Positions 5,805 to 30,530 of a stretch of 64,000 nt of DNA are shown here, piece after piece. This DNA is from a virus, in IMG/VR virus record IMGVR_UViG_3300009128_000003, positions 1-64,000 of that record, one strand, 5' to 3'. How positions within the stretch are numbered: position 1 is the stretch's first letter; every line of letters begins with the position of its first letter. Made by a program: the position numbers and the translations under genes. The notes beneath the pieces are model-generated. The model had not been told where the DNA came from. It made no database searches and saw nothing but the letters and a program-made list of their open reading frames with translations.

Positions 5805-5805
5805 C

Positions 5806-12369: not shown

Positions 12370-15300
12370 TTATCCTAGTAATCTAAATGTTCTGCCAACC
12401 GCATATGTTGAGAATCCCCAGTTTTCATCATAGTTCAATCTCGCCATGTACGGTCGGTTGAGATGCACGCGATCTTTCTCGGGTTTGATACCCCAGCACC
12501 TTATTCTAGTTAGTTCGTTGTTGGAATCAATGACCTCTACAATCCAATAGTCTTTACCTTTCTTGGTTTTTCTCGGCACAATCTTGCGCGGGATAAACCA
12601 GCAAACCTGTAGTTCTTGATCGAACTCAGAGATGGGTGGAATAAATTTGTCTTGTAGTTTCTGGACCGTCTCGGCATTAATCACCAAGTTGATGGGGAAG
12701 ACTCCAGTAAGATCCGACTTGAACTGGATGATTTCTTCTTCGCTAAAGTCGCCTTCGGGTCGGTACAGTTCTATATTCTCAGCTAACTTCTTCAAGTTCT
12801 TGGGGCGATCCACAATGCATGCAGACCAGAAATGCTTTCGACCAGTGAAGCGATCATCGACAATATTATCCAGTGCTCCGCCGCGACATAAAGCATCCAG
12901 AGACTTCTTGTTCAATTTTGAATACGTAATATTCTCGTTAAAGAGGAGATCCTCTGCATTGTTTAACGGACGGTTGGCGAGAATCTGATCGATTGCTGCT
13001 TTCCCTAATCCCTTAATAGACGTGAGTGGCTGAATCAGTGTCTTGCCATCCTCACTAATCTCCCACACTGTGCCTGACTTATTAATATCCAGTGGGGCAA
13101 TGTCGAATCCATATCGCTTGGCGATGTTGATTGCCTTTTCCTTTCTGCTCTCGGGCTCTTTGTCGAGGAATGCTGCCATCCATTCTGCGGGGTAATAGTT
13201 CCACAACCACGCGCACTGATATGAGATAATCGAATAGCTCACCGCGTGTGACTTGTTGAAGCCGTAGCCGGAGAAGTATTCAAACTTGTCCCAAAGTGCT
13301 TGGGCAGCATCGCGGTCAATGTTTTTCGCCACACACCCCTTAATAAACTTATCGTGAAGCCTGCCCTTGACGGAACCCTTTCCGGTTCCTTTCTTGGTCA
13401 AGACCTTGCGAAGCATGTTGCCTTCGTCAAGAGTGAGCCCACCCAGCTTGTGAGCCAGCAAAGCAATTTGTTCTTGGAAGATGAGGAAGCCATAAGTTTC
13501 TTCAGTGATCTCTCGTGAATCAGGAGTAAGATAGCTGATGCGCTGGGGATGCCCCTTGGCTTCTACATAATCTGTGTCTACCCCTGCCGACAATGGACCG
13601 GGACGAAAGATAGAAGTGATAGCTGATACGTCAATGATGTTGTTCGGCTTCGCTCTCACACAAAATTGTTGTGCTCCATGCTCTGTGAACTGGAAGACAC
13701 CTGCCCATTTTCCTGTGTGAAAGATGTTCTCGTAGACAGTGGAGTCGTTCATATCCAGAATGTCTGGGTGCAGTATGCGTTCATAATAATCTCGCACCTG
13801 TGCAAACGTCGGCTCTTCAACGCCGTGATGACGCTGGAGGATGTGCTCGATGCAACCTTCCATCATCTTAAGGGTGGAAAGTCCAAGCAGATCGAACTTA
13901 ATGAAGCCCATGGGCTCAAGATGGCGAACGTTCTGTCCCTCCGCCCATGGTGCCTGACGCACACCGCCAGAATTAATCAACGGCATATTGGAATCAAGGT
14001 TCTCTGCGATGACAACGCCGCCAGCGTGACGCGAGCATGATCTAACTTGTCCGACAAGTCCCTCAACGTGCGTCTTAACCTCCGGGTGTTTGTTTAGATA
14101 TGCTTGGAGAGAAGGGGAAAACTCCATGACCTCTTCCCATGTTGGCGCGTAAACACCTGCCTTTACACCATGCTTACGCTTAGCCTCCGGCGTCGCTTCC
14201 CGGATCATAATAGAGGTAACGGTGTTGACCTCAGTGAAAGGGATATTATATAGCTTTGAGATATCCTTAATTAAACTTTTGAGCTGCAGCGTGTTCCAGT
14301 TAGAGATGGGCGCAACACAATCCTCTCCCCACATCTCAACTAACTTTTCTTTCAGTGCCATGCTGTCGGATACATCGTAGTCAATATCTGGGTAGTCCTT
14401 AGCATCAGAGCGTAAGAAGCGAGAGAACAGCAAGTCATGCTTAATGGGATCCACTTGAGTAATACCAAGCGCATAGGCGACAAGTGAGCCGGCGGCTGAT
14501 CCTCGACCGGGACCGGTCAGCATCATGTCTGTTGCTACATCCACGATAGACTTCATGGTTAAGAAATATTTGGAGAACCCTCGCTCGTCAATAACATTAA
14601 GCTCTTGTCTCAAACGCTCAGTGTACTCTGAGTTTTTATGAAATCCCCTGTCCTTTAGACCTTCAAGTGCATAATTAACAAGCGCTTGAGTTGCGGTATA
14701 GCCAGCCGGTACAACGAATTCGGGGAGGCGGACTGTATTGTCAGGCAAGAAAGACTCGATGCGTTCAAACGCAATGCGATGTGTCTCCTCAATACTTTTC
14801 AAGACTACTGCATCATCGTATTCAAACCCACCGCTTTCTGAATACTGCTTGTAGCTTTCCCAGATTTGATCACCGTTCTTCGGATACAGTTCATATCCGA
14901 TTTCTTCAACCCCAGCGGGAAGTTGTGATTCTTCCTCTGCCCATGATGGTCTACCCTTTCCAAGCCACCCCAATCGCTTGTATAGTTCGCGGTCCTTCCA
15001 AGCATCGGGATTCGGGTAGTGGCTGTCGGCTGTTGTGATCAAACTAACGCCCATTTCTTGTGCCGTCTGGATAACAAATTGGTTCAGCTTATGCTGGTCT
15101 TCAATGTTGTTCCATTGTATTTCTGCATACCAACGGTCACCAAATATTTCTACCATGCGTTCGGTGGTATCACGCATGGCACTTAAAACTGCTTCATCGC
15201 TTTCTTCGCGGTTCTCCCAATAATCACCCGCGTACACACCTCCAAGGCATGCGCTAGCGGCGATAATACCCTCGTTGTACTTCTCCAAAAGTCTATAGTC

Positions 15301-15801
15301 TATACGGGGGTACCTATAAAAATTCTCTGACTGGTAGCTCTCTGAGACCAGCTTAAACAGGTTGTTGAGACCTGTCTGATTTTGTGCCAACAGGACGAGG
15401 TGACGTCGGCGCCGAAGGATATCTTGTGTCTTCTTGCTGGCGCCCTCATCCTCAACAGTTGCGCCTGAAGCTTTAGCTGCTTTGGCGGATCTGGCGCGCT
15501 TCTTATCTTCCATCGCTCTGGTGTATTCTTCTTGCCACTCCTCAACGGACGGGATAAAGTATGCTTCACACCCAAAGATTGGTTTAAACTCTTTGCCGCC
15601 CTCCTGCATTTTCTTTGCGTGCAGTACTTGGTATGCTAAGCCGTTCATGTTTCCATGATCAGTGAGCGCTAGTGCATCTCCGCCATTTTCATAACAAAAA
15701 TCCATGTGTGCCTGTGGATATCCAATGGCATCGAAAATGGACCCCGCTACGCTGTGCGCGTGCAGCCCAACAAATTTAATCTTAGAATCAGTACGACTCA
15801 T
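12370..15801 (-). CDS. dnaE: DNA polymerase III alpha subunit (DnaE type)
   Basis: The 1143-residue protein is a full-size C-family polymerase. It starts with a PHP domain (FVGLHAHSVAGS, then ALALTDHGNMNG). The palm has TGPGRGSAAGSLVAYALGIT and the catalytic aspartates in DYPDIDYDVSD. The fingers region has RSCSRHAGGVVIAE, FKFDLLGL-type and VFQFTEHGA segments, and the region before the helix-hairpin-helix has FNKSHAVSYSIISYQCAWL. A C-terminal OB-like region ends the protein. It polymerises DNA and normally needs a sliding clamp; none is encoded in this window. No epsilon-type exonuclease is fused. The promoter at 15827-15855 lies in the 3' end of the upstream gene. T4-like phages typically use a B-family enzyme, so this is a notable replacement or transfer. 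Confidence 0.97.
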   Translation of the reverse strand: MSRTDSKIKFVGLHAHSVAGSIFDAIGYPQAHMDFCYENGGDALALTDHGNMNGLAYQVLHAKKMQEGGKEFKPIFGCEAYFIPSVEEWQEEYTRAMEDKKRARSAKAAKASGATVEDEGASKKTQDILRRRRHLVLLAQNQTGLNNLFKLVSESYQSENFYRYPRIDYRLLEKYNEGIIAASACLGGVYAGDYWENREESDEAVLSAMRDTTERMVEIFGDRWYAEIQWNNIEDQHKLNQFVIQTAQEMGVSLITTADSHYPNPDAWKDRELYKRLGWLGKGRPSWAEEESQLPAGVEEIGYELYPKNGDQIWESYKQYSESGGFEYDDAVVLKSIEETHRIAFERIESFLPDNTVRLPEFVVPAGYTATQALVNYALEGLKDRGFHKNSEYTERLRQELNVIDERGFSKYFLTMKSIVDVATDMMLTGPGRGSAAGSLVAYALGITQVDPIKHDLLFSRFLRSDAKDYPDIDYDVSDSMALKEKLVEMWGEDCVAPISNWNTLQLKSLIKDISKLYNIPFTEVNTVTSIMIREATPEAKRKHGVKAGVYAPTWEEVMEFSPSLQAYLNKHPEVKTHVEGLVGQVRSCSRHAGGVVIAENLDSNMPLINSGGVRQAPWAEGQNVRHLEPMGFIKFDLLGLSTLKMMEGCIEHILQRHHGVEEPTFAQVRDYYERILHPDILDMNDSTVYENIFHTGKWAGVFQFTEHGAQQFCVRAKPNNIIDVSAITSIFRPGPLSAGVDTDYVEAKGHPQRISYLTPDSREITEETYGFLIFQEQIALLAHKLGGLTLDEGNMLRKVLTKKGTGKGSVKGRLHDKFIKGCVAKNIDRDAAQALWDKFEYFSGYGFNKSHAVSYSIISYQCAWLWNYYPAEWMAAFLDKEPESRKEKAINIAKRYGFDIAPLDINKSGTVWEISEDGKTLIQPLTSIKGLGKAAIDQILANRPLNNAEDLLFNENITYSKLNKKSLDALCRGGALDNIVDDRFTGRKHFWSACIVDRPKNLKKLAENIELYRPEGDFSEEEIIQFKSDLTGVFPINLVINAETVQKLQDKFIPPISEFDQELQVCWFIPRKIVPRKTKKGKDYWIVEVIDSNNELTRIRCWGIKPEKDRVHLNRPYMARLNYDENWGFSTYAVGRTFRLLG

Positions 15802-15810
15802 AATCCCTCC

Positions 15811-18510: not shown

Positions 18511-18535
18511 CTCGCAATGCTCCCCCTTTGTGTCC

Positions 18536-18814
18536 TTATTTAATTAGTCCTAAAACATAATTATCTAACACAAGGGAGGTGTCCTCGCCGTTGATCACAA
18601 GCTGTTCTACCATAGACTTATCCACAAGGACCTGAACACCCTGTGATAGCTGTTCTGCAAAGCGAACTTCTGTCGACCACGCCACAACGGAGGCTACGAC
18701 ATGTCGATCTTCTGTCGGTTTAAAATCTTGTGGAAGCAGGACGCCTCCTGCTGTTTCGTGGGGACTTGGTTGTCCCAAATCAATCTGAATGTATCTATTG
18801 AGTGGCTCAAACAT
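18536..18814 (-). CDS. GroES-like co-chaperonin (gp31-type partner)
   Basis: The 92-residue product starts at ATG 18814 with GGAAAG upstream; the longer reading of the frame has no site. It follows the GroES pattern: a PLNRYIQIDL strand, the mobile-loop region SPHETAGGVLLPQ (GroES has a similar x-AGGIVL), a VVASVVAW strand, a VQVLVDKSM strand, an EDTSLVLDNYVLGLI end. The loop hydrophobic triplet GVLL suits GroEL contact. It is not T4 gp31-like in sequence but fills that role by position in a phage with its own GroEL. A late-type element at 18844-18851 overlaps the nrdJ stop. Confidence 0.8.
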   Translation of the reverse strand: MFEPLNRYIQIDLGQPSPHETAGGVLLPQDFKPTEDRHVVASVVAWSTEVRFAEQLSQGVQVLVDKSMVEQLVINGEDTSLVLDNYVLGLIK

Positions 18815-18842
18815 GTTATTACTTTCCGGGTTAGTTGTTAAT

Positions 18843-20810
18843 TTAAATAGTGCAAGAATCGTTAGTACAGAACTTGGTGCCGCTGCCGCCTTCATCTGTC
18901 TCGAATCGCATCAGTGGTTTAATTTGTTTAGTCGCCTCATCATACTGCTCTTTAGTAATAGATTCATAGGGAGCTTGTTCATATCCCGTTTCTTCATATT
19001 TTAAAAAGGAGACTGCCTTCAGACGAGATTCGTACATCTCAAGGGCATCTTTAATTTGGGAAGCCTCTTCGGGCTTAAAGGTGACTGTCACTGATACGGA
19101 GTTGTCAGCCCAGTAGTGCTGGTACTGTGCCGCGATCTCCAACTGTTCCCACATAGATACGCTGCGCTTTCCTTTTTGAAAGTGCGGTTCGTGAACCGGA
19201 AATTCTACGCAGAGTGTGTTGGGAGAGTAACGATCATCTTCCATCTTGTATCCCGCTTCAACAAGTTTATCAATTAATTTTGAATCTTTTGAGAACCTGA
19301 TACGTCTAATGTAGTACTCGTCTTCGGGGAAGTGGATGCCCGGGGTCGATCCGTTGAGCAGCGAGACTGTTCCGGACGGCTTGATCGAGGTCATCCGAAT
19401 AGACTTGGGGATACATAACCAGTTAGAATATTCTTCGTCTAATTCTTGAACGTGTGCGTACGCCTTGTCGCACCAATCATACATCTGTCGGCGTCCGTGC
19501 TTGTTGAATGCCTGCACAACACCCGACTGAGATAGTCCGATGCGCCGGTTCTTAAGCATCTTTGCGTTTGTTTCTGGCCAATGAGTGTTGGAGAGGGTGA
19601 CAGTCTTTCCGTATAAATAAGCAATCTTTAAAGTGCGCAAGTAGTCTTCTATGTCGTCGTGCTTGGCTGGATATGTCTCGACCAAGCAGCATAGCTCCGC
19701 GTCTTCCAGCTGTTGTTCCACGCAAGGATTGAATCCTGCGACATTAATATCGTCTAGACGTTCGCCATCTTTAAATCGTCCGCGGGTGCGTGCGTTGTTG
19801 AGCCAAATATATCCCGGTTCACCATTTTTCTGGGACTGTGTCGCGTGCCATGTGTAGTCCATGCCCACGACCGCATTGAAGGAATTGTTCGAACCCCATC
19901 GATGATGCATGAGCTTTTCAGAATCGTTCTTCATCTCTAGATATCGCTTGTCGTCGTAGCGACCCATTGCTAGAGCAGCAGAGCGGCGCACATTGCCCGC
20001 CACCACACAGCGCCCGATCAGGTTCTCGGTATCCACGATATCAACAGAACTAATTGGCTCACCAATGCGACCGGCATACAGTTCCGTTAGGTTTTTATGC
20101 AACTCGATAAGCGGGCGGGCGCCCGATGAGGTGCCCCCAAAGCCGCGAATGATGGCGCCCTGTGGTCGGATAGAGGAGTAGTCAAACTTGGGCACCTTTC
20201 CACCAAAGAAGAATCCATCGAGCAAAAGATGAACAGAATCAACCCACCCCTCACGGGAGTCATCGATAACATGGATGTCATTAGTATAGTGGGGCTCTTT
20301 GACGTTAACGGTTCCAGCGCCCTCGGTGTCGAACCCTACGCCAATGCCTACCATAAGAGCATCCATCATCCACGCGAACAAATAGCCGCCTTTGGTAGCC
20401 AAGTCGCGAGTTGATCTAAATGCGCAGTTAAACAATCCGGCAGCGGTCTTCTCTTCAATAAACTTGGTCCCCATCATCCACAGTCCGCGACCGGGTGGTG
20501 TCCACTTTAAATTAAACAGCCGATCATAAGCGTCCTTGGCTGTCTTCTGTGCCTTGGCATCATTCCATTCTAAGCCCAATAAGAATACGTGCTGCTTTTG
20601 CATGTTGAACATGCCCTCGACAACTCGGCGACATGTTTGCCACCACTCTTCGCTCCCGGTGGCGTCGGGTTCAAATTCGTTTAGGCGCCGCGAGTAGGTA
20701 CGTTTATATGTTACATACCCTAGGGGTCCCCATGGGACGGTGGCTCCTTTATACGGCTCAATGAATGTATCGGAAAGCCGGAAGCGGCGGATGTTGTCAA
20801 GTGTTCTCAT
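18843..20810 (-). CDS. nrdJ: Class II (adenosylcobalamin-dependent) ribonucleoside-triphosphate reductase
   Basis: The 655-residue protein matches the monomeric B12-dependent reductase. Segments include GLFNCAFRST, GVGFD, RRSAALAMG, the active-site FNPCVEQQLEDAELCCLVE with the thiyl-radical and partner cysteines, SIKPSGTVSLLNGSTPG and a C-terminal redox pair FCTNDSC. It makes dNTPs without oxygen or an NrdB subunit but needs host cobalamin. Class II enzymes are common in marine phages. The gene runs into the GroES-like gene and follows the helicase by 6 nt. The C-terminal cysteines are re-reduced by thioredoxin, which the phage may supply (9159-9518). Confidence 0.95.
   Translation of the reverse strand: MRTLDNIRRFRLSDTFIEPYKGATVPWGPLGYVTYKRTYSRRLNEFEPDATGSEEWWQTCRRVVEGMFNMQKQHVFLLGLEWNDAKAQKTAKDAYDRLFNLKWTPPGRGLWMMGTKFIEEKTAAGLFNCAFRSTRDLATKGGYLFAWMMDALMVGIGVGFDTEGAGTVNVKEPHYTNDIHVIDDSREGWVDSVHLLLDGFFFGGKVPKFDYSSIRPQGAIIRGFGGTSSGARPLIELHKNLTELYAGRIGEPISSVDIVDTENLIGRCVVAGNVRRSAALAMGRYDDKRYLEMKNDSEKLMHHRWGSNNSFNAVVGMDYTWHATQSQKNGEPGYIWLNNARTRGRFKDGERLDDINVAGFNPCVEQQLEDAELCCLVETYPAKHDDIEDYLRTLKIAYLYGKTVTLSNTHWPETNAKMLKNRRIGLSQSGVVQAFNKHGRRQMYDWCDKAYAHVQELDEEYSNWLCIPKSIRMTSIKPSGTVSLLNGSTPGIHFPEDEYYIRRIRFSKDSKLIDKLVEAGYKMEDDRYSPNTLCVEFPVHEPHFQKGKRSVSMWEQLEIAAQYQHYWADNSVSVTVTFKPEEASQIKDALEMYESRLKAVSFLKYEETGYEQAPYESITKEQYDEATKQIKPLMRFETDEGGSGTKFCTNDSCTI
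18844..18851 (-). promoter_or_regulatory. Late-type ACTATTTA element upstream of the GroES-like gene
   Basis: Minus-strand CACTATTTAAATT overlaps the nrdJ stop codon and lies 30 nt upstream of ATG 18814. It would allow the co-chaperonin to be expressed with virion genes separately from the replication operon. Inference from motif recurrence. Confidence 0.4.
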
Positions 20811-20816
20811 TGGTTG

Positions 20817-22202
20817 CTATTTCCTTCTTAGTTTAGTATATTTTGCCTTTAAAAGTTCCTGCTGCGCTCTTGGATCAAGGGAGACTGGCGATGTCGCCAC
20901 TTGCTGAGTATTGTTACCGGCGCCCAATTGGTGAATCTTAGGCAAAATTTTGATATTCACATTGGAGGTGTCCATAAATATATTATACACCATTCCGTCC
21001 GGTCCGTTTCTATTTTTTGCAATAAAAATCTTTCCTTGATTGTTCTGTTTGTCCTCAATCGTTCGCGAGACAGAGAAAATAAAGTCGGCAACAAAGCACT
21101 TATTAAATGCCTCTGAGATTTGTTCCATTGTGATCACCTCTGCGCTCAGACCGGCGCGATTTGTTTGTGATGCGGTCCACACAGGGCACTGGAACTCTGT
21201 GGAGAGGGCGCGCAACTCCTCATAAATAGACCCAAGCTCTTCGCGCTTCTCTTTGCGCATTTGCATGGGCTTGAGAAGATCTGCGTAATCTACAATAACC
21301 ATTCCAGGATTAATACCACGCTTAACAAGCCGAGAAAGATGTGCTCGGATTGTATTTGTGGAGGCAGACTTAGTTGGGTACTCTTTAACAATAAGTGTTC
21401 CATCAATGTTTTTAATTTCTTCATATATCTCTTCCTTAAAATTAATGATGTCCGAAAGGGGATAACCTGTGATACAACTATCGTAGCGAGTTGCAATGAC
21501 CGTATCTTGAAGTTCTAGTGTATAGTGTACTACAGTTTTGCCTTCTTTTAAAGCTTCAGATCCAAGATGCACAAGAACCATCGACTTGCCGGCTCCTGTG
21601 GGGGCAATCACAACCCCCAGTTCGCTCTTGCCTAAGCCGCCACCAATGATACCATCGATGTCGGACCAGCCTGTAGAGACTGGTACTCGGAACTTGGGCA
21701 TGAACCTCTCTTCAAAGTCTGCCATGTAATCATAGCCAAAATTATTTTCAGATCCCAATTTTAAGGCATCATTAATAACTTTAGAAATCTCGTCAAAAGA
21801 ACAATTCTGCAAAAGATTAACGGACGTCAGCATCGCCTCTTTCAGGTTTTGCTTACGACAAAAATCAAGCGAGATTTCCTTGATGTATTCTGCGTCCGTC
21901 ACCTCTTGGGTGTGCATGCGAGCGAAATAATCCTTCACTTGTTGTTGGATCGTCTCGTCTTCATCTTCCAGTTCAGTCTTAATGATGGTTAACATCGCAT
22001 TGACTGATGGGTGCTTGTCGTATTTCTCTCGGAATGTTAGCGTTTTCCTTAGAAAGACACGCAGATACTCTAGCTCAATGAAGTTAGTATCAAGTACTTC
22101 AGTGATCTGATCTGCGAATGGTCTATCCTCAAAAATAAGCTGAACAAGTCCTTCTTGGAAAGTTTTTCCATACTTTCCAAAGTTGATTTTACTTGCTGCC
22201 AT
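20817..22202 (-). CDS. DnaB/gp41-type replicative helicase
   Basis: The 461-residue RecA-fold helicase has a Walker A loop in VVIAPTGAGKSMVLVH, a Walker B-type MVIVDYADLLKP, then QCPVWTASQTNR and an ADFIFSVSR segment, as in T4 gp41 and DnaB. The N-terminal 150 residues are helical. It unwinds DNA 5'-3' as a hexamer at the fork. The promoter is at 22226-22253. No primase gene is recognised in the window, so priming must come from outside it or from the host. Confidence 0.92.
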   Translation of the reverse strand: MAASKINFGKYGKTFQEGLVQLIFEDRPFADQITEVLDTNFIELEYLRVFLRKTLTFREKYDKHPSVNAMLTIIKTELEDEDETIQQQVKDYFARMHTQEVTDAEYIKEISLDFCRKQNLKEAMLTSVNLLQNCSFDEISKVINDALKLGSENNFGYDYMADFEERFMPKFRVPVSTGWSDIDGIIGGGLGKSELGVVIAPTGAGKSMVLVHLGSEALKEGKTVVHYTLELQDTVIATRYDSCITGYPLSDIINFKEEIYEEIKNIDGTLIVKEYPTKSASTNTIRAHLSRLVKRGINPGMVIVDYADLLKPMQMRKEKREELGSIYEELRALSTEFQCPVWTASQTNRAGLSAEVITMEQISEAFNKCFVADFIFSVSRTIEDKQNNQGKIFIAKNRNGPDGMVYNIFMDTSNVNIKILPKIHQLGAGNNTQQVATSPVSLDPRAQQELLKAKYTKLRRK

Positions 22203-22225
22203 TTATACCCCCGCTTGTGTTTATA

Positions 22226-22253: not shown

Positions 22254-22267
22254 GGCAAAAATAAGAT

Positions 22268-23248
22268 TTATTCGGTTGCATTGTCAACACACTCTCTCGC
22301 TATTTTGTTTAAGTGTGTCTTAAGATCTTCCCAATTTAGCTCACCAAATCCATCGGCGCGCATCAGTCCCAGAATCTCTGTCTTGTTGAACTCACATTCA
22401 AAATTTTCTATGGACTCCTTCACATGCATCTTAGATTGGAAAGACATCTGGGGCGCATAGAGTTGCATCATCTTGTAGTTGTGTTCGATAACCCCTTTGT
22501 TCTCTGCGATGTTATCGAAAACCTTAAGCTTGCTGTTCTCGCTAGCATTGGCGCAATAGTCTACGACATCATCAATAGTATATGTCTTCTCTTCACCTAA
22601 AAACGATAGGCGCTTACTTATTGTTTTGAATCCAACACCCTTGATGCCAGCTAAGTTATCGGACGCATCTCCAATGATGGAGCGCGCTAGTGCCATATTA
22701 GTAGGGTGGACGCCCGTCTGTTCGACGATGCGCTTGGTGTTGAGCATTTCATTTTGAGTGGGGCGCCACAACACCGTCTCATCGTCGCAAATCTGCATGA
22801 AGTCTTTATCATTAGAGACAATGATCTTCTGCCAGCCCTTATAGTAGTCCATCGAGCAGACATACGAAATCACGTCATCGGCTTCAATCTCTGGAAGAAG
22901 GGTTTGGATGATGGGCATGTTGTTAAGATACTCGATCACTCTCCCTTGCTGCCAAATCTTATTCTGCAACTCTTCGTCGTCTGTAAGGTTGTGGAATGCT
23001 CTGTTGAGGCGGATCGGCTTGCGACCTTCCTTGTAGTTCTTGTCCATAGTCTTGCGCTTCTTGGATCCGTTCGGACCATCCCACGCAACCACCACCTGAT
23101 CGGGTCGTGTTTCTCTCACCAGTTTCTGTAAAATCTTGATGAAGCCTTTGAGTCCCCCAATCGGCTGCCCATTGGTGGACAGCGATGGGTCTACAATATA
23201 TGCCCTCAGATACGCATTCAGCGCATCAATAATTAATACTCGTTTCAT
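22268..23248 (-). CDS. 5'-3' exonuclease / flap endonuclease (T4 RNase H / PolA N-domain type)
   Basis: The 326-residue protein has the FEN signature: VLIIDALNAYLRAY, VVVAWDGPNGSKKRK, LPEIEADDVISYV, IVSNDKDFMQI and the GDASDNLAGIKGVGFKTISKRL helix-hairpin-helix. The metal-binding aspartates are present in each. It removes RNA primers and 5' flaps. It stands alone, not fused to a polymerase, although a small family-A polymerase is encoded at 29355-30530. It overlaps a 37-residue reading frame and is transcribed from 23385-23413. Confidence 0.94.
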   Translation of the reverse strand: MKRVLIIDALNAYLRAYIVDPSLSTNGQPIGGLKGFIKILQKLVRETRPDQVVVAWDGPNGSKKRKTMDKNYKEGRKPIRLNRAFHNLTDDEELQNKIWQQGRVIEYLNNMPIIQTLLPEIEADDVISYVCSMDYYKGWQKIIVSNDKDFMQICDDETVLWRPTQNEMLNTKRIVEQTGVHPTNMALARSIIGDASDNLAGIKGVGFKTISKRLSFLGEEKTYTIDDVVDYCANASENSKLKVFDNIAENKGVIEHNYKMMQLYAPQMSFQSKMHVKESIENFECEFNKTEILGLMRADGFGELNWEDLKTHLNKIARECVDNATE

Positions 23249-23358: not shown

Positions 23359-23384
23359 AAAGCCCTCCTTTGTGATTATATTCT

Positions 23385-23413
23385 ATTATAACCAATTAGG
23401 AGGACAAAGTCAA
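23385..23413 (-). promoter_or_regulatory. sigma70-type promoter of the nuclease unit
   Basis: Minus-strand TTGACT (23408-23413), 17 bp, TATAAT (23385-23390). It starts just after the recA stop codon. Confidence 0.85.
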
Positions 23414-23420
23414 CAACTTT

Positions 23421-24560
23421 TTATTCTTTTACTGGAACCGTCAGATCTTCAGGATCGGCGTAGAAGGCATCCGCGTTGCCTTCTCGATTCTGGAACTTCT
23501 GAACAATCTCTTCATCCATGATCTTGATCACTTCGGCACGGAACTCGGGATCAGATGTAATCAACCCTGTCCACTTGGAGGGTTGAAATTTCTTTTCGTA
23601 GCCTCCGGGTGTCTTAAGAGTATACCAAGCTCCGGCGGACGAGAGAGACTCGGAGCTTTTAATAGCGTCAAACCAACTCTCTTCGTCGCGAATGCCAATC
23701 TCTTCAGCGCCCCATAAGATGCGGAATGCACAAGAGCGCCCTTGCGTGCCAAAGCGAGACTTCTCTAGCTTAATTTTAACCTCTGATCCAATTCGGAAAC
23801 CCTTTTCATCTTCGATGAATGATGCCTTTGCCTTGCGACCAGTCAGCCAGATGCGCAGCGAATAAGAATAGTGCATCGCCTTGCCGCCGGGGGTTGTGTA
23901 GGGCGTGGTCATCGCCACAATGCGGGCATTCGGACCCTGTGGGATATTGGTCTTAAGCTGATTCAGGACAAGCAGAGTCGCCTGCTTATCAGCAATAGGG
24001 ATCGTCAGCTTGGACATTCCCTTTGCAAGAATGCGCGCCTTCACCGCCATCGATGATTGCGGATTGAAGTCGCCCTCCACGTCTGAGACAGAAGGGGTAA
24101 ATGCTAGCGAATCCCAGATAAAAACAATCTGTTCGTCGGTTGCTGCTAGAAGCTCTTCGATAGTCTCCAGCACAAACTCGACAGAGGATGCTTGAACGTA
24201 CATTAAGCGCTCTAGGTCGCACCCTGTTCTCTCCAAAAAACTTGGGTCGATGGCAGACTCAGAATCAAAATATACGACGAGCTTCCCCGTCTTCTGCGCA
24301 TTGGCTGCGATCTGTGCTGCCATGTATGACTTGCCCGTGGACTCCAGTCCGGCGATCTCTGTGACCTTACCGACTGGGACGCCTGCTACTCGTCCCTTGC
24401 AGATGATCGAGTCAAGCCAGCGAGAGCCTGTTGGAATCCATTCTTTAACGGAGGTGGGGTTGTCGCCGGTTAGATCATGGGCAACGCTCCGACCGGCTTT
24501 CTTGTTTACTAGTTTCATTAGGTCTTGCATTGCCACGCGACCTGCTTTGGCTTTTGCCAT
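23421..24560 (-). CDS. recA: RecA/UvsX-type recombinase
   Basis: The 379-residue protein has the RecA core: WIPTGSRWLDSIICKG, Walker A GLESTGKSYMAAQ, a FIWDSLAF Walker B strand, then LVLNQLKTNIPQGP and an ARIVAMTTPYTTPGGKAM segment as in RecA/UvsX loops. It forms filaments on single-stranded DNA for strand exchange. The lysine in the P-loop and the Gln/Asn of loop 2 are present. The promoter is at 24592-24620. It precedes the FEN unit and belongs to the replication-recombination part. Confidence 0.95.
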   Translation of the reverse strand: MAKAKAGRVAMQDLMKLVNKKAGRSVAHDLTGDNPTSVKEWIPTGSRWLDSIICKGRVAGVPVGKVTEIAGLESTGKSYMAAQIAANAQKTGKLVVYFDSESAIDPSFLERTGCDLERLMYVQASSVEFVLETIEELLAATDEQIVFIWDSLAFTPSVSDVEGDFNPQSSMAVKARILAKGMSKLTIPIADKQATLLVLNQLKTNIPQGPNARIVAMTTPYTTPGGKAMHYSYSLRIWLTGRKAKASFIEDEKGFRIGSEVKIKLEKSRFGTQGRSCAFRILWGAEEIGIRDEESWFDAIKSSESLSSAGAWYTLKTPGGYEKKFQPSKWTGLITSDPEFRAEVIKIMDEEIVQKFQNREGNADAFYADPEDLTVPVKE

Positions 24561-24575
24561 GTGCTCTCCTACAGT

Positions 24576-25685
24576 TTAAAGCATTGATATTATTTTATCT
24601 AAGTCTTGCGGGTTTGTCAAGCTTAAATTTGATTTTTTATAGCGCCCTTTGATTTTTACAGCAACTGTGAAGCTGGTGGAGCTATTGGCTCCCATGGAGG
24701 GCTTTAGTCTTAATCGCAAATCACAGTTTAGTCCCAAGTCTCCGAACATGGGCACATCAATAATTGTTTGTGCAGGCGTCTTTAGGGCGTAAAGTCCTGC
24801 TTGCCCAATCTGAATGAACGAATCGCCCTTATCTGCATAGTAACCCGCAATCCGTGAGAATTCAAACGGCACCTTCTTGTCCGTCTTCCCATCAAACCAT
24901 TTGGTTTGTAAATCTTTCTTGAGTTCTCCGGTCTTTTGCGTTGGCAGCAGACCAACGACGCTATTGCCGCGCAGGTTTAAGCGCCGATCATACAAGTCCG
25001 GAAACTTGGCGTAGTGGTTGAGCCAGTCTCGCAAGTAGTCATTGAATAGAGAACCGAAAACCTTTTCGTTCTTAACAAAACCAGCAGTGCGGCGAGGCTC
25101 CCAGCTTTTAGACTGAATGTTGTACTCAATCCGAAACTGTCCGAAGTCTGCCGAGAGCGCGGTCTTAAGTTCGATGGACATCATCTTGCGTCCGTTCTTT
25201 AAGATAGTTAAATCAGAGCCGTGACCGAACCCGGCAGTCGTGGCGGTGATGCCAGCATGCCGGTATCGACTAGTGATCTCAGTCGCCAATTTTTCTTCGA
25301 AGTCCATGCCGGCTGATGCTGCAGTGCGGCGCTTTTGTTTAACGACAACGTAGGCGGATCCGCCGGAGGCAGCTTTAAGCTCTAAGCGACCCAGCGAACT
25401 GCGAGTTGAATTGGGGTTGTAAACGAAGCCGAGAGGGCTGAGCATCTGCTCTAATTTCTGCATCGTCTCTTGGCGGTTGTCGTCTAAGACACGGATCTCA
25501 TTCTTGACGATCTTATACTCGTAGCCTTCTGCCTCGATTGCACGGATGGCGCGCTGTAGATTGTTCTCAGGTCCATCTTCCGGTGATGGCAGCGGCGTGG
25601 TAGCGTCATCCTCCATTTCGGATGGGATGTCGACCTCCTCTTCCATCGCCCTCTTAAAACTAATATGTAACTCGTTCATGTTCAT
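24576..25685 (-). CDS. PD-(D/E)XK nuclease-like protein
   Basis: The 369-residue protein has a GMDFEEKLATEI helix at about residue 125, then HGSDLTILKNG and KMMSIELKTALS. Glu, Asp and Glu-x-Lys in that order fit a PD-(D/E)XK catalytic core. The C-terminal half is beta-rich (DVPMFGDLGL, LRLRLKPSMG). The N-terminal 110 residues form a separate helical part. It overlaps the D12 methyltransferase stop codon (ATGA) and precedes recA, so it could work with either: restriction-like with the methyltransferase, or DNA-end processing with recA. Both are inferences. Confidence 0.7.
   Translation of the reverse strand: MNMNELHISFKRAMEEEVDIPSEMEDDATTPLPSPEDGPENNLQRAIRAIEAEGYEYKIVKNEIRVLDDNRQETMQKLEQMLSPLGFVYNPNSTRSSLGRLELKAASGGSAYVVVKQKRRTAASAGMDFEEKLATEITSRYRHAGITATTAGFGHGSDLTILKNGRKMMSIELKTALSADFGQFRIEYNIQSKSWEPRRTAGFVKNEKVFGSLFNDYLRDWLNHYAKFPDLYDRRLNLRGNSVVGLLPTQKTGELKKDLQTKWFDGKTDKKVPFEFSRIAGYYADKGDSFIQIGQAGLYALKTPAQTIIDVPMFGDLGLNCDLRLRLKPSMGANSSTSFTVAVKIKGRYKKSNLSLTNPQDLDKIISML
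24592..24620 (-). promoter_or_regulatory. sigma70-type promoter of recA
   Basis: Minus-strand TTGACA (24615-24620), 17 bp, TAAAAT (24592-24597), inside the 3' end of the upstream PD-(D/E)XK gene. Confidence 0.75.
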
Positions 25686-26482
25686 CTCGCAATAATTAGT
25701 ATCTCAGATGACTCTTTACTCTTATTCATCCCGTAAGACCATTCTGTTTCAATAATCTCATAATCTTTATACATCTTTTTAATTTCTTTGCAATTGTTAT
25801 ATGACATAACCCATCCAGCTCTCTTTGTCAACAAGCTGTGTAATCTTTCGTGATCAAACGAGTTGTGTAGATTCCCACTAATCCCATAGAGAGAATTCTG
25901 AGACCCTTTCAGCATATATGGTGGATCAAGATATAAGAAAGCTTTTGGGTGATAGCCCATCGCGTCTTCAAAATCGGCATAATCTACTCTAAAGTTTTTG
26001 GCTTCGAAATCCCTTAATCTTTGAACCGACGAATCTGTAAATCTTGCATATGAAGCCCTCTCGGACCATCCACCACTAAATGTAGCGCCAGAAAAACTAG
26101 CGCGATTAATAGCATAATACCTTGCTGCTCTCTCGTAAGAAAACATAAACGATTCAGTCTTAAGATCCTCTCGGTACTGGTGAAATGACTCTTTTGAACA
26201 GCCTGTCACGGTATCGCCGTTTCGAATCTCATATTGTTCTCGCAGGCTTTGCACCTCGTCAGCTAGATGATCGTTGTCTGCGCATAGCGCCATCCAGAAC
26301 CATACTAGCTGCTTCATCTTGTCGTAGCCGCGCACCTCAGTGCCCCTGTCGGCAACTGCTAGCTCAACAGAGCCTCCGCCAAAGAAAGGCGAGCAAAGTC
26401 GGTCAATGTCTTCCGGGATGTGAGGCAAGATGTGCTTAACAGCACGTGATTTGCCGCCTGGGTAGCGTAACGGTGTCTTCAT
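25682..26482 (-). CDS. D12-class N6-adenine DNA methyltransferase (Dam)
   Basis: The 266-residue protein has all D12 motifs: LRYPGGKSRAVKHILPHIP, the FFGGGSVELA loop that binds S-adenosylmethionine, NRASFSGATFSGG, and catalytic DPPY in FLYLDPPYMLKG. It methylates adenine in a short site. The phage also has a Dam-type enzyme at 9806-10279 and a degenerate D12 relative at 544-1314. It overlaps the PD-(D/E)XK gene downstream. The upstream gap (26483-26551) shows no convincing promoter. Confidence 0.92.
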   Translation of the reverse strand: MKTPLRYPGGKSRAVKHILPHIPEDIDRLCSPFFGGGSVELAVADRGTEVRGYDKMKQLVWFWMALCADNDHLADEVQSLREQYEIRNGDTVTGCSKESFHQYREDLKTESFMFSYERAARYYAINRASFSGATFSGGWSERASYARFTDSSVQRLRDFEAKNFRVDYADFEDAMGYHPKAFLYLDPPYMLKGSQNSLYGISGNLHNSFDHERLHSLLTKRAGWVMSYNNCKEIKKMYKDYEIIETEWSYGMNKSKESSEILIIAR

Positions 26483-26551
26483 TATAAAACCAAAAATCTC
26501 AAAAATATACCGGCGAAAAAATTTGGGAGATCGACATTTTAAGATTTTTTG

Positions 26552-27277
26552 TCAAGCTGACAACCACGCCTCGATACAAGCATTGGCCAATAATTCGCGC
26601 CGTTCACAGTCCTCGTCATACAAGAAATAAGGCTCATCGGGATATAGGCGACCACTATCAATGATATACTTGTCTTGTTTGTGAGCACATGTCCTGCAAA
26701 CAAAATCATAATCATTCTTTTCCATGCGGATGTGTCTCTTAATTTCATCAATGTGATGTAACAACAGCTCATTGTCTGTAAAATACCCCAATGCGTAATT
26801 TGACTTTGTCTTGGCGTACGCGTACTCATATACTTCTTTTTCCGTGTAGCGAGGGTTTTGTTTTTTTATATACCAAATCGTTTTTTTGTATTCTTTTAAC
26901 GTAAAGGCTCCCTTCTCATTAGTTTGATGAACAATGTATTCCGGGATCATCGAGCAAAACTTATCATCATCCACAGCACGAGTTGCCAAAACTCTATAGG
27001 GTGTAGGGTGCCAATTATGTTGCAGCACGGGTTCTGTACTTTCCTTCTCGCAGCATGGGCACGTAAATGTTCCACCTTTTGTGATAGACAATAGCTCTAA
27101 ATCTCTCATATCTTTAAGCCATTTGTAAGTATATGGCTTCTTGAACTGTGTTTTAGAAAGCATTTTCAAAACATGCTTTTTGGTTCGATATGGATTTTTC
27201 AGATTCTTATTGTTTATCTTTCTGATAGCTATATCTAACTCGCTTAAAAGCGACTGTTGATTTACTGCCTGTGTCAC
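26552..27277 (-). CDS. Uncharacterised cysteine-rich (zinc-binding) protein, GTG start
   Basis: The 241-residue product starts at GTG 27277 behind AAGGAGGGG; the longer reading has no site and crosses a terminator hairpin. It holds FTCPCCEKES and VCRTCAHKQD pairs about 140 residues apart and a basic N-terminal helix (KKHVLKMLSK). Several His and Trp residues follow the first pair (LQHNWHPTPYRV). This could be a split zinc finger or nuclease-like metal site; no family is recognised. It sits alone between terminators. Confidence 0.7.
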   Translation of the reverse strand: MTQAVNQQSLLSELDIAIRKINNKNLKNPYRTKKHVLKMLSKTQFKKPYTYKWLKDMRDLELLSITKGGTFTCPCCEKESTEPVLQHNWHPTPYRVLATRAVDDDKFCSMIPEYIVHQTNEKGAFTLKEYKKTIWYIKKQNPRYTEKEVYEYAYAKTKSNYALGYFTDNELLLHHIDEIKRHIRMEKNDYDFVCRTCAHKQDKYIIDSGRLYPDEPYFLYDEDCERRELLANACIEAWLSA

Positions 27278-27288
27278 GAGCCCCTCCT

Positions 27289-27318
27289 TAAAAACGGCAG
27301 ACTTTTTACCGGTCTGCC
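27289..27318 (-). terminator. Rho-independent terminator of 27333-27581
   Basis: Minus-strand GGCAGAC, a nine-base loop and GTCTGCC (27296-27318) are followed by GTTTTT. It lies between the stop of the small membrane gene and the GTG start at 27277. Confidence 0.75.
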
Positions 27319-27332
27319 AGCGGCTTTTGTAA

Positions 27333-27581
27333 CTACTCAGTTGTAGTTGTGGTAGTTGGGGCGGTCGTGGTGCTATCACCAGTCGTCTCGGGGGTGGTGG
27401 TTGCCGACGCCTCAACTGCTGTGTTGGTCGTGGTAGACTCTGCTGGAGCCACCTCTGCTTCTGACACAGTGGGGGGCTCATATGAACAAGTTCCGTAAAT
27501 GCTGCTAATGACTAAGATGCCACCTACAACGCTCACATGAACCTTCCATTTGGACCATAGGTCCTTGAGTTTATCTAACAT
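27333..27581 (-). CDS. Small single-span protein with a Thr/Ala-rich tail
   Basis: The 82-residue protein has a charged start (LDKLKDLWSKWKV), one hydrophobic helix (about residues 14-32, HVSVVGGILVISSIYG) and a Thr/Ala/Glu-rich tail of 50 residues. A cysteine follows the helix (YGTC) but the residues before it do not fit a lipobox well. It could be a spanin- or holin-accessory-like membrane protein; this is weak inference. It is flanked by terminators on both sides. Confidence 0.65.
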   Translation of the reverse strand: MLDKLKDLWSKWKVHVSVVGGILVISSIYGTCSYEPPTVSEAEVAPAESTTTNTAVEASATTTPETTGDSTTTAPTTTTTTE

Positions 27582-27598
27582 ATTATTGTCTCCTATTT

Positions 27599-27637
27599 AA
27601 AAAAATATGGCAGAGTATTTTAATCCCGCTCTGCCAT
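27599..27637 (-). terminator. Rho-independent terminator of the SSB gene
   Basis: A perfect 9-bp stem (ATGGCAGAG / CTCTGCCAT, 27607-27637) with a 13-base loop is followed by ATTTTTTT on the minus strand. It lies about 25 nt after the SSB stop. Confidence 0.85.
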
Positions 27638-27661
27638 CGGTATCAGACATGCCTATTTACT

Positions 27662-28432
27662 TTAGCCAGACATTAGTTCATCAAATGCACGGTCAACACT
27701 GCTCTTACCGTTGGCAGGACCGTACTTGGCTGTCGTAGATGAGCGGCTTTCTGCGGAGGAATCTCCCGAAAGTTGCTCATCCAAGATAGCGTCTACTTGT
27801 TGAGTACTAAGACGATCAAAGAGACCATCGAAGTCAGGAATGCCATCGAGGAGGGCGGGGATAGCTTCCGTATCTTCAAGCAATGTGGATGTGTTGCGAC
27901 GCATCTTGAGGCTTGTCTGTGGGTATGCACCGGGCTTATTAGGCTTGGTGTAGGTGAGGGTGATATCGGTGCCCTCTTGGCTATCAGTGATATCACCATA
28001 TTCTGGATCGAGGATGTATCCAAGAAGAAGCTCATAAGCCTGCTTGCCGTAGCCGTAGACCTTGATCCCCTCCTCTTCGCGACCTCGCACAACGACGGGT
28101 GAAAAGTAGCGCGTTCGCACAAAGAGACTCTTTGCGAGCTTCTTGCTCTCATCGTCATTGTTATCAACTCCCTCGCGCCAAAGCTTGGAAGCGAATTCGC
28201 AAATTGGACATTCATCGCCGAAGTTTCGCTTCGGACACATGATGCCTCCCTTATGATCGCCCACGTTATAGTGGAAGAACATTTCCTTTAGTGGATCTCC
28301 GTCATTAGTCGGTACGATCCGAATGTCAGTATCTCCCTCGTCTGGCTTAAACCATGGCGAGTTTGCATCCTTGTTTCCTTCTCCGCGAAGGGTTGCGAGC
28401 TTACGTCGCATTAGTTCCATATCAATTCCCAT
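27662..28432 (-). CDS. gp32-like single-stranded DNA-binding protein
   Basis: The 256-residue protein has a basic N-terminal segment (ELMRRKLATLRGEG) like the T4 gp32 cooperativity region, a core with ANSPWFKPDEGDTDIRI, and a zinc motif HKGGIMCPKRNFGDECPIC. It ends in an acidic/Ser-rich part and a DRAFDELMSG tail that may bind replication proteins. It coats single-stranded DNA at the fork. The gene is its own unit with a strong promoter (28486-28514), a hairpin in the leader and a strong terminator. Confidence 0.9.
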   Translation of the reverse strand: MGIDMELMRRKLATLRGEGNKDANSPWFKPDEGDTDIRIVPTNDGDPLKEMFFHYNVGDHKGGIMCPKRNFGDECPICEFASKLWREGVDNNDDESKKLAKSLFVRTRYFSPVVVRGREEEGIKVYGYGKQAYELLLGYILDPEYGDITDSQEGTDITLTYTKPNKPGAYPQTSLKMRRNTSTLLEDTEAIPALLDGIPDFDGLFDRLSTQQVDAILDEQLSGDSSAESRSSTTAKYGPANGKSSVDRAFDELMSG

Positions 28433-28463
28433 TTTTTTCTCCTTTTTAATGGTTAATAAAGTA

Positions 28464-28482
28464 TATCAAGCGTTCCTTGATA
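28464..28482 (-). promoter_or_regulatory. Leader inverted repeat upstream of the SSB gene
   Basis: TATCAAG, five bases, CTTGATA (28464-28482) lies between the promoter and the start codon at 28432. T4 gp32 represses its own translation by binding its leader; a hairpin here could act similarly. Alternatively it is an operator. Confidence 0.45.
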
Positions 28483-28485
28483 CCT

Positions 28486-28514
28486 AATATATCACTCTTG
28501 AACAAGCTTGTCAA
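28486..28514 (-). promoter_or_regulatory. sigma70-type promoter of the SSB gene
   Basis: Minus-strand TTGACA (28509-28514), 17 bp, TATATT (28486-28491). The -35 lies in a near-perfect palindrome (28494-28516) at the 3' end of the upstream gene. Confidence 0.8.
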
Positions 28515-29358
28515 GAGTTTTTTGGTTGTTTTGTACTACGTTAGTGTGGGCAACGCAGAACCCAAAATCGTTATAAGGTGTTTCATAGATTGCATATGAC
28601 AGCTTGCGAAATGCATTTCGGGGTTTATCCTTCAACATGTCTACGAGTCGCTTGTGCAATCCTCCTTCGTTCTCTAATCTCTCAGTCTTTATAGCTAAAT
28701 AATAACATAATTCTCGGGGAGTGTCAAGCTCAAAAAGCCATTTTTCTTCAAGATTTGTTAAATCTAAACCTGCTACGCTCCGAATTCTATTTATGTCTGC
28801 TGGTTTTGATACCTGTCCAATCTCCGGCTCTGTGTGCGTAAAGTAATTTACATGGTGCACGGTTGAAAAAATGAACTGATTCAAAGAGTCATAGTAAGTC
28901 TTAATGGGCAAGTCCCCCATGCAATTCTCTAAATTAAGATTGGACACGATGGTCATTGAGTTAAAAAGCCCTGAGCGAGCATACTCCTGTAGCACGCCAA
29001 AGACTGCATTCTCTATAAGGACTGGATATCCCGTGAGAAGCTCTGTGTCGGGCTTCACATAGATGACATCAATTTTCTTATCCTTTATTTGTTCCAAGAT
29101 CCCCAGCGAGTAGTTGGAGCTATACGAGCCTCCCACGATGAAAAATTGAATGTGTTCTTCTGTGGTTTCAAAAAACTTTGTTACGTTAGGGATGTGCTTC
29201 TCATAAAGCTCGGGATGATCATAAGCTTTTAGTTTGAACTTATATTTAGAATTGCGCTTCACCTTGTCATTCATGACATACACGCTATATTGAGGAATGT
29301 CTTTGAATTTCTCAACAATAGCAGTGGCGGCGTTGCCCAAGCCAACAATGGAAATCAT
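28492..29358 (-). CDS. Putative tubulin/FtsZ-like protein
   Basis: The 288-residue protein starts with a nucleotide-loop pattern MISIVGLGNAATAIVEKF. It continues with VYVMND, IVGGSYSSNYSLG (76-86, at the place of the tubulin signature GGGTGTG), and VIYVKPD as in the 'vvtkPF' strand of FtsZ. LIENAVFGVL and RSGLFNSMTIVSN follow, like the FtsZ helix and T5-like loop that precede IxN. The C-terminal 100 residues resemble no family by eye. The signature is altered (Ser in place of Thr/Gly), so GTP binding is plausible but not certain. It overlaps the small polymerase stop. Related proteins may exist in other T4-like marine phages; jumbo-phage PhuZ is a distant comparison. Confidence 0.5.
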   Translation of the reverse strand: MISIVGLGNAATAIVEKFKDIPQYSVYVMNDKVKRNSKYKFKLKAYDHPELYEKHIPNVTKFFETTEEHIQFFIVGGSYSSNYSLGILEQIKDKKIDVIYVKPDTELLTGYPVLIENAVFGVLQEYARSGLFNSMTIVSNLNLENCMGDLPIKTYYDSLNQFIFSTVHHVNYFTHTEPEIGQVSKPADINRIRSVAGLDLTNLEEKWLFELDTPRELCYYLAIKTERLENEGGLHKRLVDMLKDKPRNAFRKLSYAIYETPYNDFGFCVAHTNVVQNNQKTLDKLVQE

Positions 29359-30530
29359 AGCGTCATCTCTTTTAGATTATAATAATCTTTTCCAGCCTTC
29401 AAATTAGCCAGATAACCGTCCTCAAACGTCTCTTTGATTTTTAAAATTAAATCGCGATCTTCGTCCGAGTAATCAATAACTATTTCATCATGAACAATAT
29501 GTGAGATAAAACTTTTCCTATCTTCCAAAAGTTTATCGATCTCGACTGCTTTTGCCATGACGCGATCTGCAGTTGTGCTTTGAATGAGGTAATTCAATGC
29601 CTTCCTCTCTTCCACCAGAATCTCTCTGTTATATGGTGTCTTAATATAACCGTCTTCATACCACTTGTCAAGTACTTTTTTACGATCATACGCTTCTGCT
29701 TGAATTTCGTTGGAGTCAGGGTTATATAGCCATGCGAAGAATAGCGTTTTAGCCTCGTCACGCGTCACGTCGTGGTCCTTAAAAATGTTTTCGATGTTCC
29801 ATTGGTGGATATCTTTTTGCGGCTGTTCAAGACCGCTCAGTTCGATAAAGGTCCGCAGTTCAGCACCGTTATAATCCAAACTGAGAAGTAAGTCATTATG
29901 TGGCTTCACAATGGCTCGGAACTCCTTCTTTATCGTTAGCATCGGAAAAGAGTCTGGTCGAGTTGTGAGGCGACCGGTCACGGTCCCAAAAAGATTATAG
30001 TCTATATATTGATAGTTTTTTATTAGCTCGGTGAGTTTGTACCGATCCCGAGAAGAGTAGAGCAGATGGTGTGCCTGTGTTACATTCAGGTTAAGACGTT
30101 GGTATTGGATCTTGTGCAGGAGCTTTTGCACACTTGCAAGATGTTCGTAATTGGGGGGTGCCGGAAATGCTTCGAAAACGTGCTCGGTTACCTTGTTTTT
30201 GATCTCGCAAAATTCTAACAGAAAGTCATGAGGAATCAAGTCAAATACGCAATGGTCATTAAGGTTAACCTTGGCGATCTTAAAAGATTTAACATATGCG
30301 CGCATCTTCTTTTGCACAGACACCAGTTGTTCTGTTAAATAGTCCGGACAACAATCCTCAAGGGTGCGACCGGCACTCCGGATCCATGCGTATTCCACCG
30401 ACGGGTCTGTGATTGACCCCGTATACTTCCATGTCTTTGTGAGGTTCTCGGGAAACTTGTCAAAGTGAAGCTTTCCGTCTGTGTAGATCCCGATGCATTC
30501 AGACTTATCGTCAATAGCTTGAAAAATCAT
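29355..30530 (-). CDS. Small family-A DNA polymerase-like protein without exonuclease domains
   Basis: The 391-residue protein carries the family-A palm and finger motifs: GTVTGRLTTRPDSFP, motif A in LSLDYNGAELRTF, motif B RDEAKTLFFAWLYN with the O-helix lysine, a LNYLIQSTTADRVMAKA segment and motif C in HIVHDEIVI. The two catalytic aspartates are thus present. Only about 180 residues precede motif A, so 3'-5' and 5'-3' exonuclease domains are absent. A separate 5' nuclease is at 22268-23248. The start at 30530 overlaps the upstream gene; the ORF's longer start lacks a site. Roles could include gap filling or repair beside DnaE; the role is inferred. Confidence 0.85.
   Translation of the reverse strand: MIFQAIDDKSECIGIYTDGKLHFDKFPENLTKTWKYTGSITDPSVEYAWIRSAGRTLEDCCPDYLTEQLVSVQKKMRAYVKSFKIAKVNLNDHCVFDLIPHDFLLEFCEIKNKVTEHVFEAFPAPPNYEHLASVQKLLHKIQYQRLNLNVTQAHHLLYSSRDRYKLTELIKNYQYIDYNLFGTVTGRLTTRPDSFPMLTIKKEFRAIVKPHNDLLLSLDYNGAELRTFIELSGLEQPQKDIHQWNIENIFKDHDVTRDEAKTLFFAWLYNPDSNEIQAEAYDRKKVLDKWYEDGYIKTPYNREILVEERKALNYLIQSTTADRVMAKAVEIDKLLEDRKSFISHIVHDEIVIDYSDEDRDLILKIKETFEDGYLANLKAGKDYYNLKEMTL

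What the first reader, a model, noticed from the sequence alone, without database searches (positions are those of the whole stretch)
12370..30530. DnaE-type polymerase together with a 391-residue family-A polymerase
T4-like phages normally use a B-family polymerase. This one has a full DnaE at 12370-15801 and a minimal family-A enzyme at 29355-30530 with motifs A, B and C intact but no exonuclease domains. The 5' nuclease is separate at 22268-23248. No proofreading domain, clamp or clamp loader is visible here. This is close to a bacterial Pol III plus Pol I system split into parts.
Basis: partly seen in the sequence, partly recalled or inferred. Interest (0 to 1): 0.62.

Follow-up and report, generated by a model that had tools for sequence, protein, structure and literature searches.

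The report
Far-T4 phage DnaE plus exonuclease-less PolA
This uncultured marine relative of phage T4 copies its DNA with a bacterial-type polymerase that appears to carry its own proofreading domain, and keeps a second, stripped-down polymerase that its relatives also retain even though they use quite different main polymerases.

Summary
The window (- strand) encodes a full DnaE (12370-15801), a 391-aa family-A polymerase (29355-30530) and a separate 5' nuclease (22268-23248). All catalytic residues are present. No B-family polymerase was found in this record or in two complete ~195-kb relatives. First, a proofreading domain is present: the DnaE PHP domain keeps all nine zinc ligands of the Mycobacterium DnaE1 exonuclease, in every one of 80 sequences that covers them. 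Second, the pairing belongs to a large marine clade: all 17 DnaE contigs long enough to reach the PolA site carry it. The genome is a Far-T4 phage, near Flavobacterium phage immuto, Microcystis phage Mel-JY01 and RM378. These relatives use three other main replicases (T5-like PolA; PolB with clamp loader; split PolB). Immuto and Mel-JY01 keep a homologous small PolA in the same SSB/UvsX/5'-nuclease/helicase block. Best reading: DnaE is the exchangeable main replicase; the small PolA is an older accessory enzyme, probably filling gaps with the 5' nuclease like a Pol I split in two. Phage DnaE and two-polymerase phages are already published, so this is a new variant. An unexpected addition: the gene coupled to polA has an FtsZ/tubulin fold.

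The parts
12370..15801 (-). DnaE-type (C-family) DNA polymerase, 1143 aa; probable main replicase
   Evidence: Pfam/NCBIfam matches; PDB matches to Taq, Mtb and E. coli Pol III alpha, E 1e-102 to 1e-88; palm DDD in 80 of 80
15019..15774 (-). PHP domain of DnaE (about residues 10-261) with a complete nine-ligand metal site: H14, H16, D24, H49, E79, H134, C185, D259, H261
   Evidence: each residue conserved in 76-80 of 80 sequences, the exceptions being gaps; aligned to Taq and Mtb DnaE; exonuclease role of this site in Mtb from PMC5636811
12763..12780 (-). DnaE residues 1008-1013 (ENIELY), at the usual place of a clamp-binding motif; at best degenerate
   Evidence: recurring [E/D]N[I/L/M/V][E/D]x[Y/F]-type pattern in the family; inference, not tested
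29355..30530 (-). small family-A polymerase, 391 aa, thumb-palm-fingers core plus about 110-aa N-terminal part, no DEDD exonuclease or 5'-nuclease domain
28492..29358 (-). 288-aa protein with an FtsZ/tubulin fold; its start overlaps the polA stop by 4 bases
   Evidence: homologue beside polA in every polA locus examined; AF2 pLDDT 90.6; Foldseek TubZ/FtsZ E about 1e-13 to 1e-12
27662..28432 (-). gp32-like single-stranded DNA-binding protein
   Evidence: phrog_1192 1e-23
23421..24560 (-). UvsX/RecA-like recombinase
   Evidence: phrog_97 8e-61
22268..23248 (-). stand-alone 5'-3' nuclease (Pol I N-terminal domain family)
   Evidence: PF02739 5.5e-28; NCBIfam Pol I model residues 2-244, 3e-39
20817..22202 (-). 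DnaB/gp41-like replicative helicase
   Evidence: PF03796 1e-22
18843..20810 (-). B12-type ribonucleotide reductase
   Evidence: PF17975 and PF21995
10272..10733 (-). dUTPase-like protein; homologue lies just upstream of PolB in Mel-JY01
   Evidence: TIGR00576 2.8e-27, just under its cut-off; Mel 72232-72687 1.5e-12

Best explanation
DnaE is the phage's main replicase. It proofreads with its own PHP exonuclease and most likely borrows the host's sliding clamp and loader; primase, helicase and SSB are phage-made. The small PolA has no proofreading or 5'-nuclease domain. It is an accessory gap-filling polymerase that works with the separate 5' nuclease to replace primers and to complete repair or recombination tracts, in effect a Pol I split into two proteins. 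It belongs to the old replication block of Far-T4 phages, in which the main replicase has been exchanged several times (PolB with clamp loader, split PolB, T5-like PolA, DnaE). Shown by sequence: intact active sites, co-occurrence, synteny, different replicases in related phages. Inferred: who copies what, proofreading activity, clamp hijacking, gap filling.
For: Catalytic residues are complete in both enzymes. The PHP site is 9/9, the pattern shown to proofread in Mtb DnaE1 (PMC5636811). DnaE is among the most conserved proteins between relatives (91/90/66% to three genomes) while the small PolA is the least conserved of the core replication enzymes (65/60/44%). All DnaE contigs that reach the polA site have polA: 17 of 27 score, and the other ten end before it. 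Small-PolA homologues lie beside SSB, RecA, 5' nuclease and helicase in immuto (E 3e-18) and Mel-JY01 (3e-12), which have other main replicases. No DEDD exonuclease, PolB or beta clamp in this record or in the relatives tested.
Against: No biochemical data exist. Phage clamps can escape the Pfam models: PF02916 also finds nothing in Mel-JY01, which has an annotated clamp loader. The DnaE clamp motif is poor. No DNA ligase was noticed, though this was not searched exhaustively. RM378 gave no match to the small PolA, so it is not indispensable in the wider clade. Faster evolution does not prove an accessory role.
Confidence: 0.55

Rival explanations
1. The small PolA is mainly a repair, translesion or recombination polymerase (like exonuclease-less Pol theta/nu), working with UvsX and SSB rather than in Okazaki-fragment processing.
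For: No proofreading domain; sits in the SSB-UvsX block; Foldseek also matches Pol theta and Pol nu; a complete relative encodes a UvdE-type UV endonuclease between UvsX and the 5' nuclease.
Against: Foldseek matches all A-family polymerases alike; no theta- or nu-type inserts were identified; the block also contains the 5' nuclease and helicase.
Confidence: 0.27
2. The two polymerases split the fork, one for the leading strand and one for the lagging strand, as proposed for PolC and DnaE in Firmicutes and conceived for the PolB plus split Pol III jumbo phages.
For: Both enzymes are catalytically intact and found together wherever this could be tested; PMC7824862 suggests strand sharing for another two-polymerase phage group.
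Against: An exonuclease-less, minimal PolA evolving quickly is an unlikely strand replicase; relatives keep it beside complete replicases of other types.
Confidence: 0.1
3. The small PolA and the coupled FtsZ-fold protein form one complex in which the FtsZ-fold protein positions the polymerase or makes it processive.
For: Four-base start/stop overlap or close adjacency in every polA locus examined; confident FtsZ/TubZ fold.
Against: The GTP-binding signature is degenerate; immuto and Mel-JY01 have a different small gene after polA; adjacency is not interaction.
Confidence: 0.15

Closest known systems
Flavobacterium phage immuto (NC_055915)
   Same: Far-T4-type terminase (48%), capsid and portal; small PolA followed by SSB, RecA, 5' nuclease, DnaB helicase and RNR in the same order; GroEL
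   Different: Main replicase is a 777-aa T5-like PolA, no DnaE annotated; small PolA only about 25% identical; no FtsZ-fold homologue found between polA and SSB
Microcystis phage Mel-JY01 (PP395634)
   Same: Related structural genes; small-PolA homologue near SSB, RecA, 5' nuclease and helicase (annotated hypothetical); dUTPase-like and IMPDH-family genes near the main polymerase
   Different: Main replicase is PolB with clamp-loader subunits
Rhodothermus phage RM378 (reference Far-T4 phage)
   Same: Related capsid, portal, terminase, helicase and B12-type RNR
   Different: B-family polymerase with a separately encoded exonuclease; no small PolA match, no DnaE
Jumbo-phage group 3.2 (phage G, c-st) and marine cluster PGC_A (PMC7824862, PMC9123017)
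   Same: Phage DnaE with PHP domain; PGC_A includes RM378 and PF07733 is found in 51.9% of its members
   Different: No pairing with an exonuclease-less PolA is described in the passages read; the group 3.2 enzymes were read as close to host enzymes, whereas this DnaE sits on its own long branch
Jumbo-phage group 2.2 (PolB plus split minimal Pol III alpha; PMC7824862)
   Same: T4-like phages with two replicative-type polymerases of different families
   Different: There the main enzyme is PolB and the extra is a split minimal Pol III; here DnaE is full-length and the extra is PolA

Membership tests
Bacterial-type Pol III alpha (DnaE) | PHP, palm, fingers and HhH domains with catalytic Asp triad | tested here: met
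   D472, D474, D637 in 80/80
Bacterial-type Pol III alpha (DnaE) | intact PHP exonuclease site as in Taq and Mtb DnaE1 | tested here: met
   nine of nine ligands, aligned to 2hpi and 5lew
Bacterial-type Pol III alpha (DnaE) | beta-clamp-binding motif and C-terminal tau-binding domain | tested here: inconclusive
   only a degenerate ENIELY-type motif; NCBIfam superfamily match ends at residue 994, so the tail is unassigned
Recent host-derived DnaE | groups with a particular bacterial DnaE | tested here: not met
   Far-T4 DnaEs form their own clade (100/100) on a long stem in a tree of 19; deeper forks unresolved and one long row unreliable
Family-A DNA polymerase | motifs A, B and C and thumb-palm-fingers fold | tested here: met
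Pol I (complete) | DEDD 3'-5' exonuclease domain and N-terminal 5' nuclease in the same chain | tested here: not met
   391 aa; no PF01612 match in the genome; 5' nuclease is a separate gene
T4-type replisome (PolB, gp44/62 loader, gp45 clamp) | B-family polymerase | tested here: not met
   no PF00136 in this record or three relatives, two of them complete
T4-type replisome (PolB, gp44/62 loader, gp45 clamp) | sliding clamp and loader | tested here: inconclusive
   no PF02767 or PF02916 match and only a MoxR-like AAA protein in relatives, but PF02916 also misses Mel-JY01
Far-T4 phages | structural core closest to RM378 and kin rather than to T4 or cyanophages | tested here: met
   capsid and terminase best hits immuto, Mel-JY01, RM378 or an uncultured huge phage; no gp23 tree was built
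FtsZ/tubulin superfamily (288-aa protein) | Rossmann GTPase domain, core helix and C-terminal domain in tubulin order | tested here: met
FtsZ/tubulin superfamily (288-aa protein) | GGGTGTG nucleotide-binding signature and GTPase activity | tested here: inconclusive
   loop reads GGSYSSN here and GGSGNISG in distant members; no Pfam match in the window protein

The most novel reading that the evidence does not exclude
The exonuclease-less PolA works as a complex with the translationally coupled FtsZ-fold protein, giving a DNA polymerase tied to a tubulin-family protein that positions or tethers phage DNA synthesis, in a phage clade that swaps its main replicase while keeping this accessory polymerase.
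Probability: 0.15. Interest if true: 0.78.

Novelty: new variant of a known kind. Interest (0 to 1): 0.5.

Why it matters
It shows phages with a common virion whose main replicase differs among three polymerase families while a second, minimal polymerase stays in place. That makes it possible to test what a phage must keep in its replication block and what it can replace. It also provides small natural enzymes (a phage DnaE that probably proofreads, an exonuclease-less 391-aa PolA) to study, and a hidden FtsZ-fold gene coupled to a polymerase gene.

Tried and rejected
Dead or remnant PolA: rejected, catalytic residues invariant. Chance pairing in one contig: rejected, 17 of 17 informative contigs. 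Recent capture of a host dnaE: not supported, own long branch; the nearest isolate-phage DnaEs are about 30% identical and bacterial DnaEs about 30-35%. Hidden DEDD exonuclease: none found by PF00929 or PF01612. RM378 as a split PolA phage: rejected, its polymerase sequence has B-family motifs. Clean same-site replacement of PolB by DnaE: only suggestive; a dUTPase-like and an IMPDH-family gene are near both, but order differs and these are common phage genes. Host from MAG bins: rejected, DnaE contigs are binned with Marinimicrobia, Dehalococcoidia and Gammaproteobacteria. A first Pfam call failed on a wrong coordinate. Kazlauskas and Venclovas 2011 and Czernecki 2023 were not held.

Full report
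Observation. The window is bases 1-64000 of a 115,050-base virus record, nearly all genes on the - strand. DnaE has PHP, palm, finger and HhH domains and all three palm aspartates. The small PolA has motifs A, B and C; 30 aligned sequences (relatives 38-66% identical) keep D227, R265, K269, F273, Y277, H355 and D356 without exception (numbering of the 399-aa ORF). Its relatives start at the ATG at 30530, so 391 aa is right. The AlphaFold model (pLDDT 90.8) matches KlenTaq, apicoplast polymerase and Klenow, TM-score about 0.6 of the query. There is no recognisable exonuclease domain; the first 110 residues are a conserved part of unknown role.

Proofreading. The DnaE PHP domain, however, has H14, H16, D24, H49, E79, H134, C185, D259 and H261, conserved in every one of 80 sequences that covers them. 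These align with Taq and Mtb DnaE. In Mtb DnaE1 nine such residues hold three zinc ions and form the proofreading exonuclease, while E. coli has five of nine altered (PMC5636811). PMC3919608 reports that alpha-, beta- and gammaproteobacterial DnaE1 have extensive substitutions in the site, while DnaE1 of other bacteria conserve it. Proofreading here is therefore likely, but it has not been measured.

How general. Eighty IMG/VR contigs encode the DnaE at 82-100% identity. Two of these contigs are complete genomes of about 195.5 kb, inferred from 100- and 127-base end overlaps, so the window's record is probably a fragment of such a genome. Among 30 long records, 20 hold the small PolA. Of the 27 found through DnaE, 17 have it; nine of the others end within 2.6-9.6 kb upstream of DnaE, short of the polA position, and the tenth begins inside the gene next to polA. 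So the two occur together wherever the contig allows a test.

Missing parts. No PolB, DEDD exonuclease or beta clamp was found. AAA matches in the complete relatives are a MoxR-like protein beside a VWA-type partner, and weak hits to PhoH. The T4 clamp model found nothing, but it also found nothing in Mel-JY01, which has a clamp loader, so a divergent clamp cannot be excluded. Primase is encoded outside the window.

Relatives. The best isolate matches of terminase and capsid are Flavobacterium phage immuto, Microcystis phage Mel-JY01, RM378 and an uncultured huge phage. RM378 is the reference of the Far-T4 clade (PMC4360716). Immuto encodes a small PolA followed by SSB, RecA, 5' nuclease, helicase and RNR, the same order as here, plus a second 777-aa PolA whose nearest non-self matches include the Proteus phage Stubb polymerase. 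That Stubb is T5-like is from my own knowledge. Mel-JY01 has PolB and clamp-loader genes, and a profile of the small PolA finds its 'hypothetical' 50397-51623, E 3e-12, upstream of SSB, RecA, 5' nuclease and helicase. RM378 has a B-family polymerase and a separate exonuclease gene (families judged from sequence motifs). The main replicase thus differs between relatives while the small PolA is found in three of the four lineages.

Mechanism. Between this genome and three relatives DnaE is 91, 90 and 66% identical; SSB 94, 80 and 48%; UvsX 88, 86 and 70%; helicase 87, 79 and 62%; 5' nuclease 79, 75 and 52%; small PolA 65, 60 and 44%. This suits DnaE as main replicase and PolA as accessory. A 5' nuclease related to the Pol I N-terminus in the same block suggests the two act together as a split Pol I. 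Use of the host clamp is inferred from the absence of a detectable phage clamp; the place of the clamp motif holds only ENIELY-like sequence.

Origin of DnaE. In a tree of 19 sequences the Far-T4 DnaEs are one fully supported clade on a long stem, joined to no bacterial group; deeper forks are open and the Streptomyces row is unreliable. Old acquisition is the safest statement.

What is known. PMC7824862 describes PHP-bearing Pol III alpha as the replicase of jumbo-phage group 3.2, and group 2.2 phages with PolB plus a split Pol III. PMC9123017 reports PF07733 in 51.9% of marine cluster PGC_A, which includes RM378. DnaE in such phages, and two polymerases per phage, are therefore known. The pairing with an exonuclease-less PolA, its persistence beside different main replicases, and its coupling to an FtsZ-fold gene were not found in the papers searched, a limited library.

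Coupled gene. The stop of polA overlaps the start of a 288-aa gene by four bases; homologues lie next to polA in all 66 loci from the viral scan and in the relatives G001, G002 and G006. The model (pLDDT 90.6) matches TubZ and FtsZ, E about 1e-13 to 1e-12, TM up to 0.71, with no significant sequence match. The nucleotide loop is degenerate. Whether it partners PolA is open.

Noticed in passing
28492-29358 (-): 288-aa protein with an FtsZ/tubulin fold not visible by sequence, next to polA in all loci examined.
   Followed up: partly
record position 75182-76330 (L001:12182-13330, -), outside the window: A second, canonical FtsZ/tubulin homologue (Pfam Tubulin 1.4e-8, GGGGGTGS loop), 93-95% identical in two complete relatives; not detected in the 132-kb relative G006, which may be a fragment.
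   Followed up: partly
2214-3797; 5166-5852; 11762-12367 (-): Phage GroEL and two ClpP-like proteases, one directly after dnaE.
   Followed up: no
24576-27481 (-): Dam-type methyltransferase, a neighbouring protein with a possible nuclease role and a zinc-finger-like protein lie between UvsX and SSB; no homologues at E 1e-5 in three relatives, so a local insertion, perhaps restriction-modification.
   Followed up: partly
L167:17825-18817 (complete relative G001): UvdE-type UV endonuclease gene between the 5' nuclease and UvsX in a relative, a variable repair slot in the same block.
   Followed up: no
L073:1346-1801 and L078:1674-2063: Immuto and Mel-JY01 carry a different shared small protein (HRKKESNTxYTINxLN) directly after their small polA.
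   Followed up: no
L188, L190, L191: DnaE contigs of this phage clade sit in MAG bins of Marinimicrobia, Dehalococcoidia and Gammaproteobacteria, so bins do not tell the host.
   Followed up: partly
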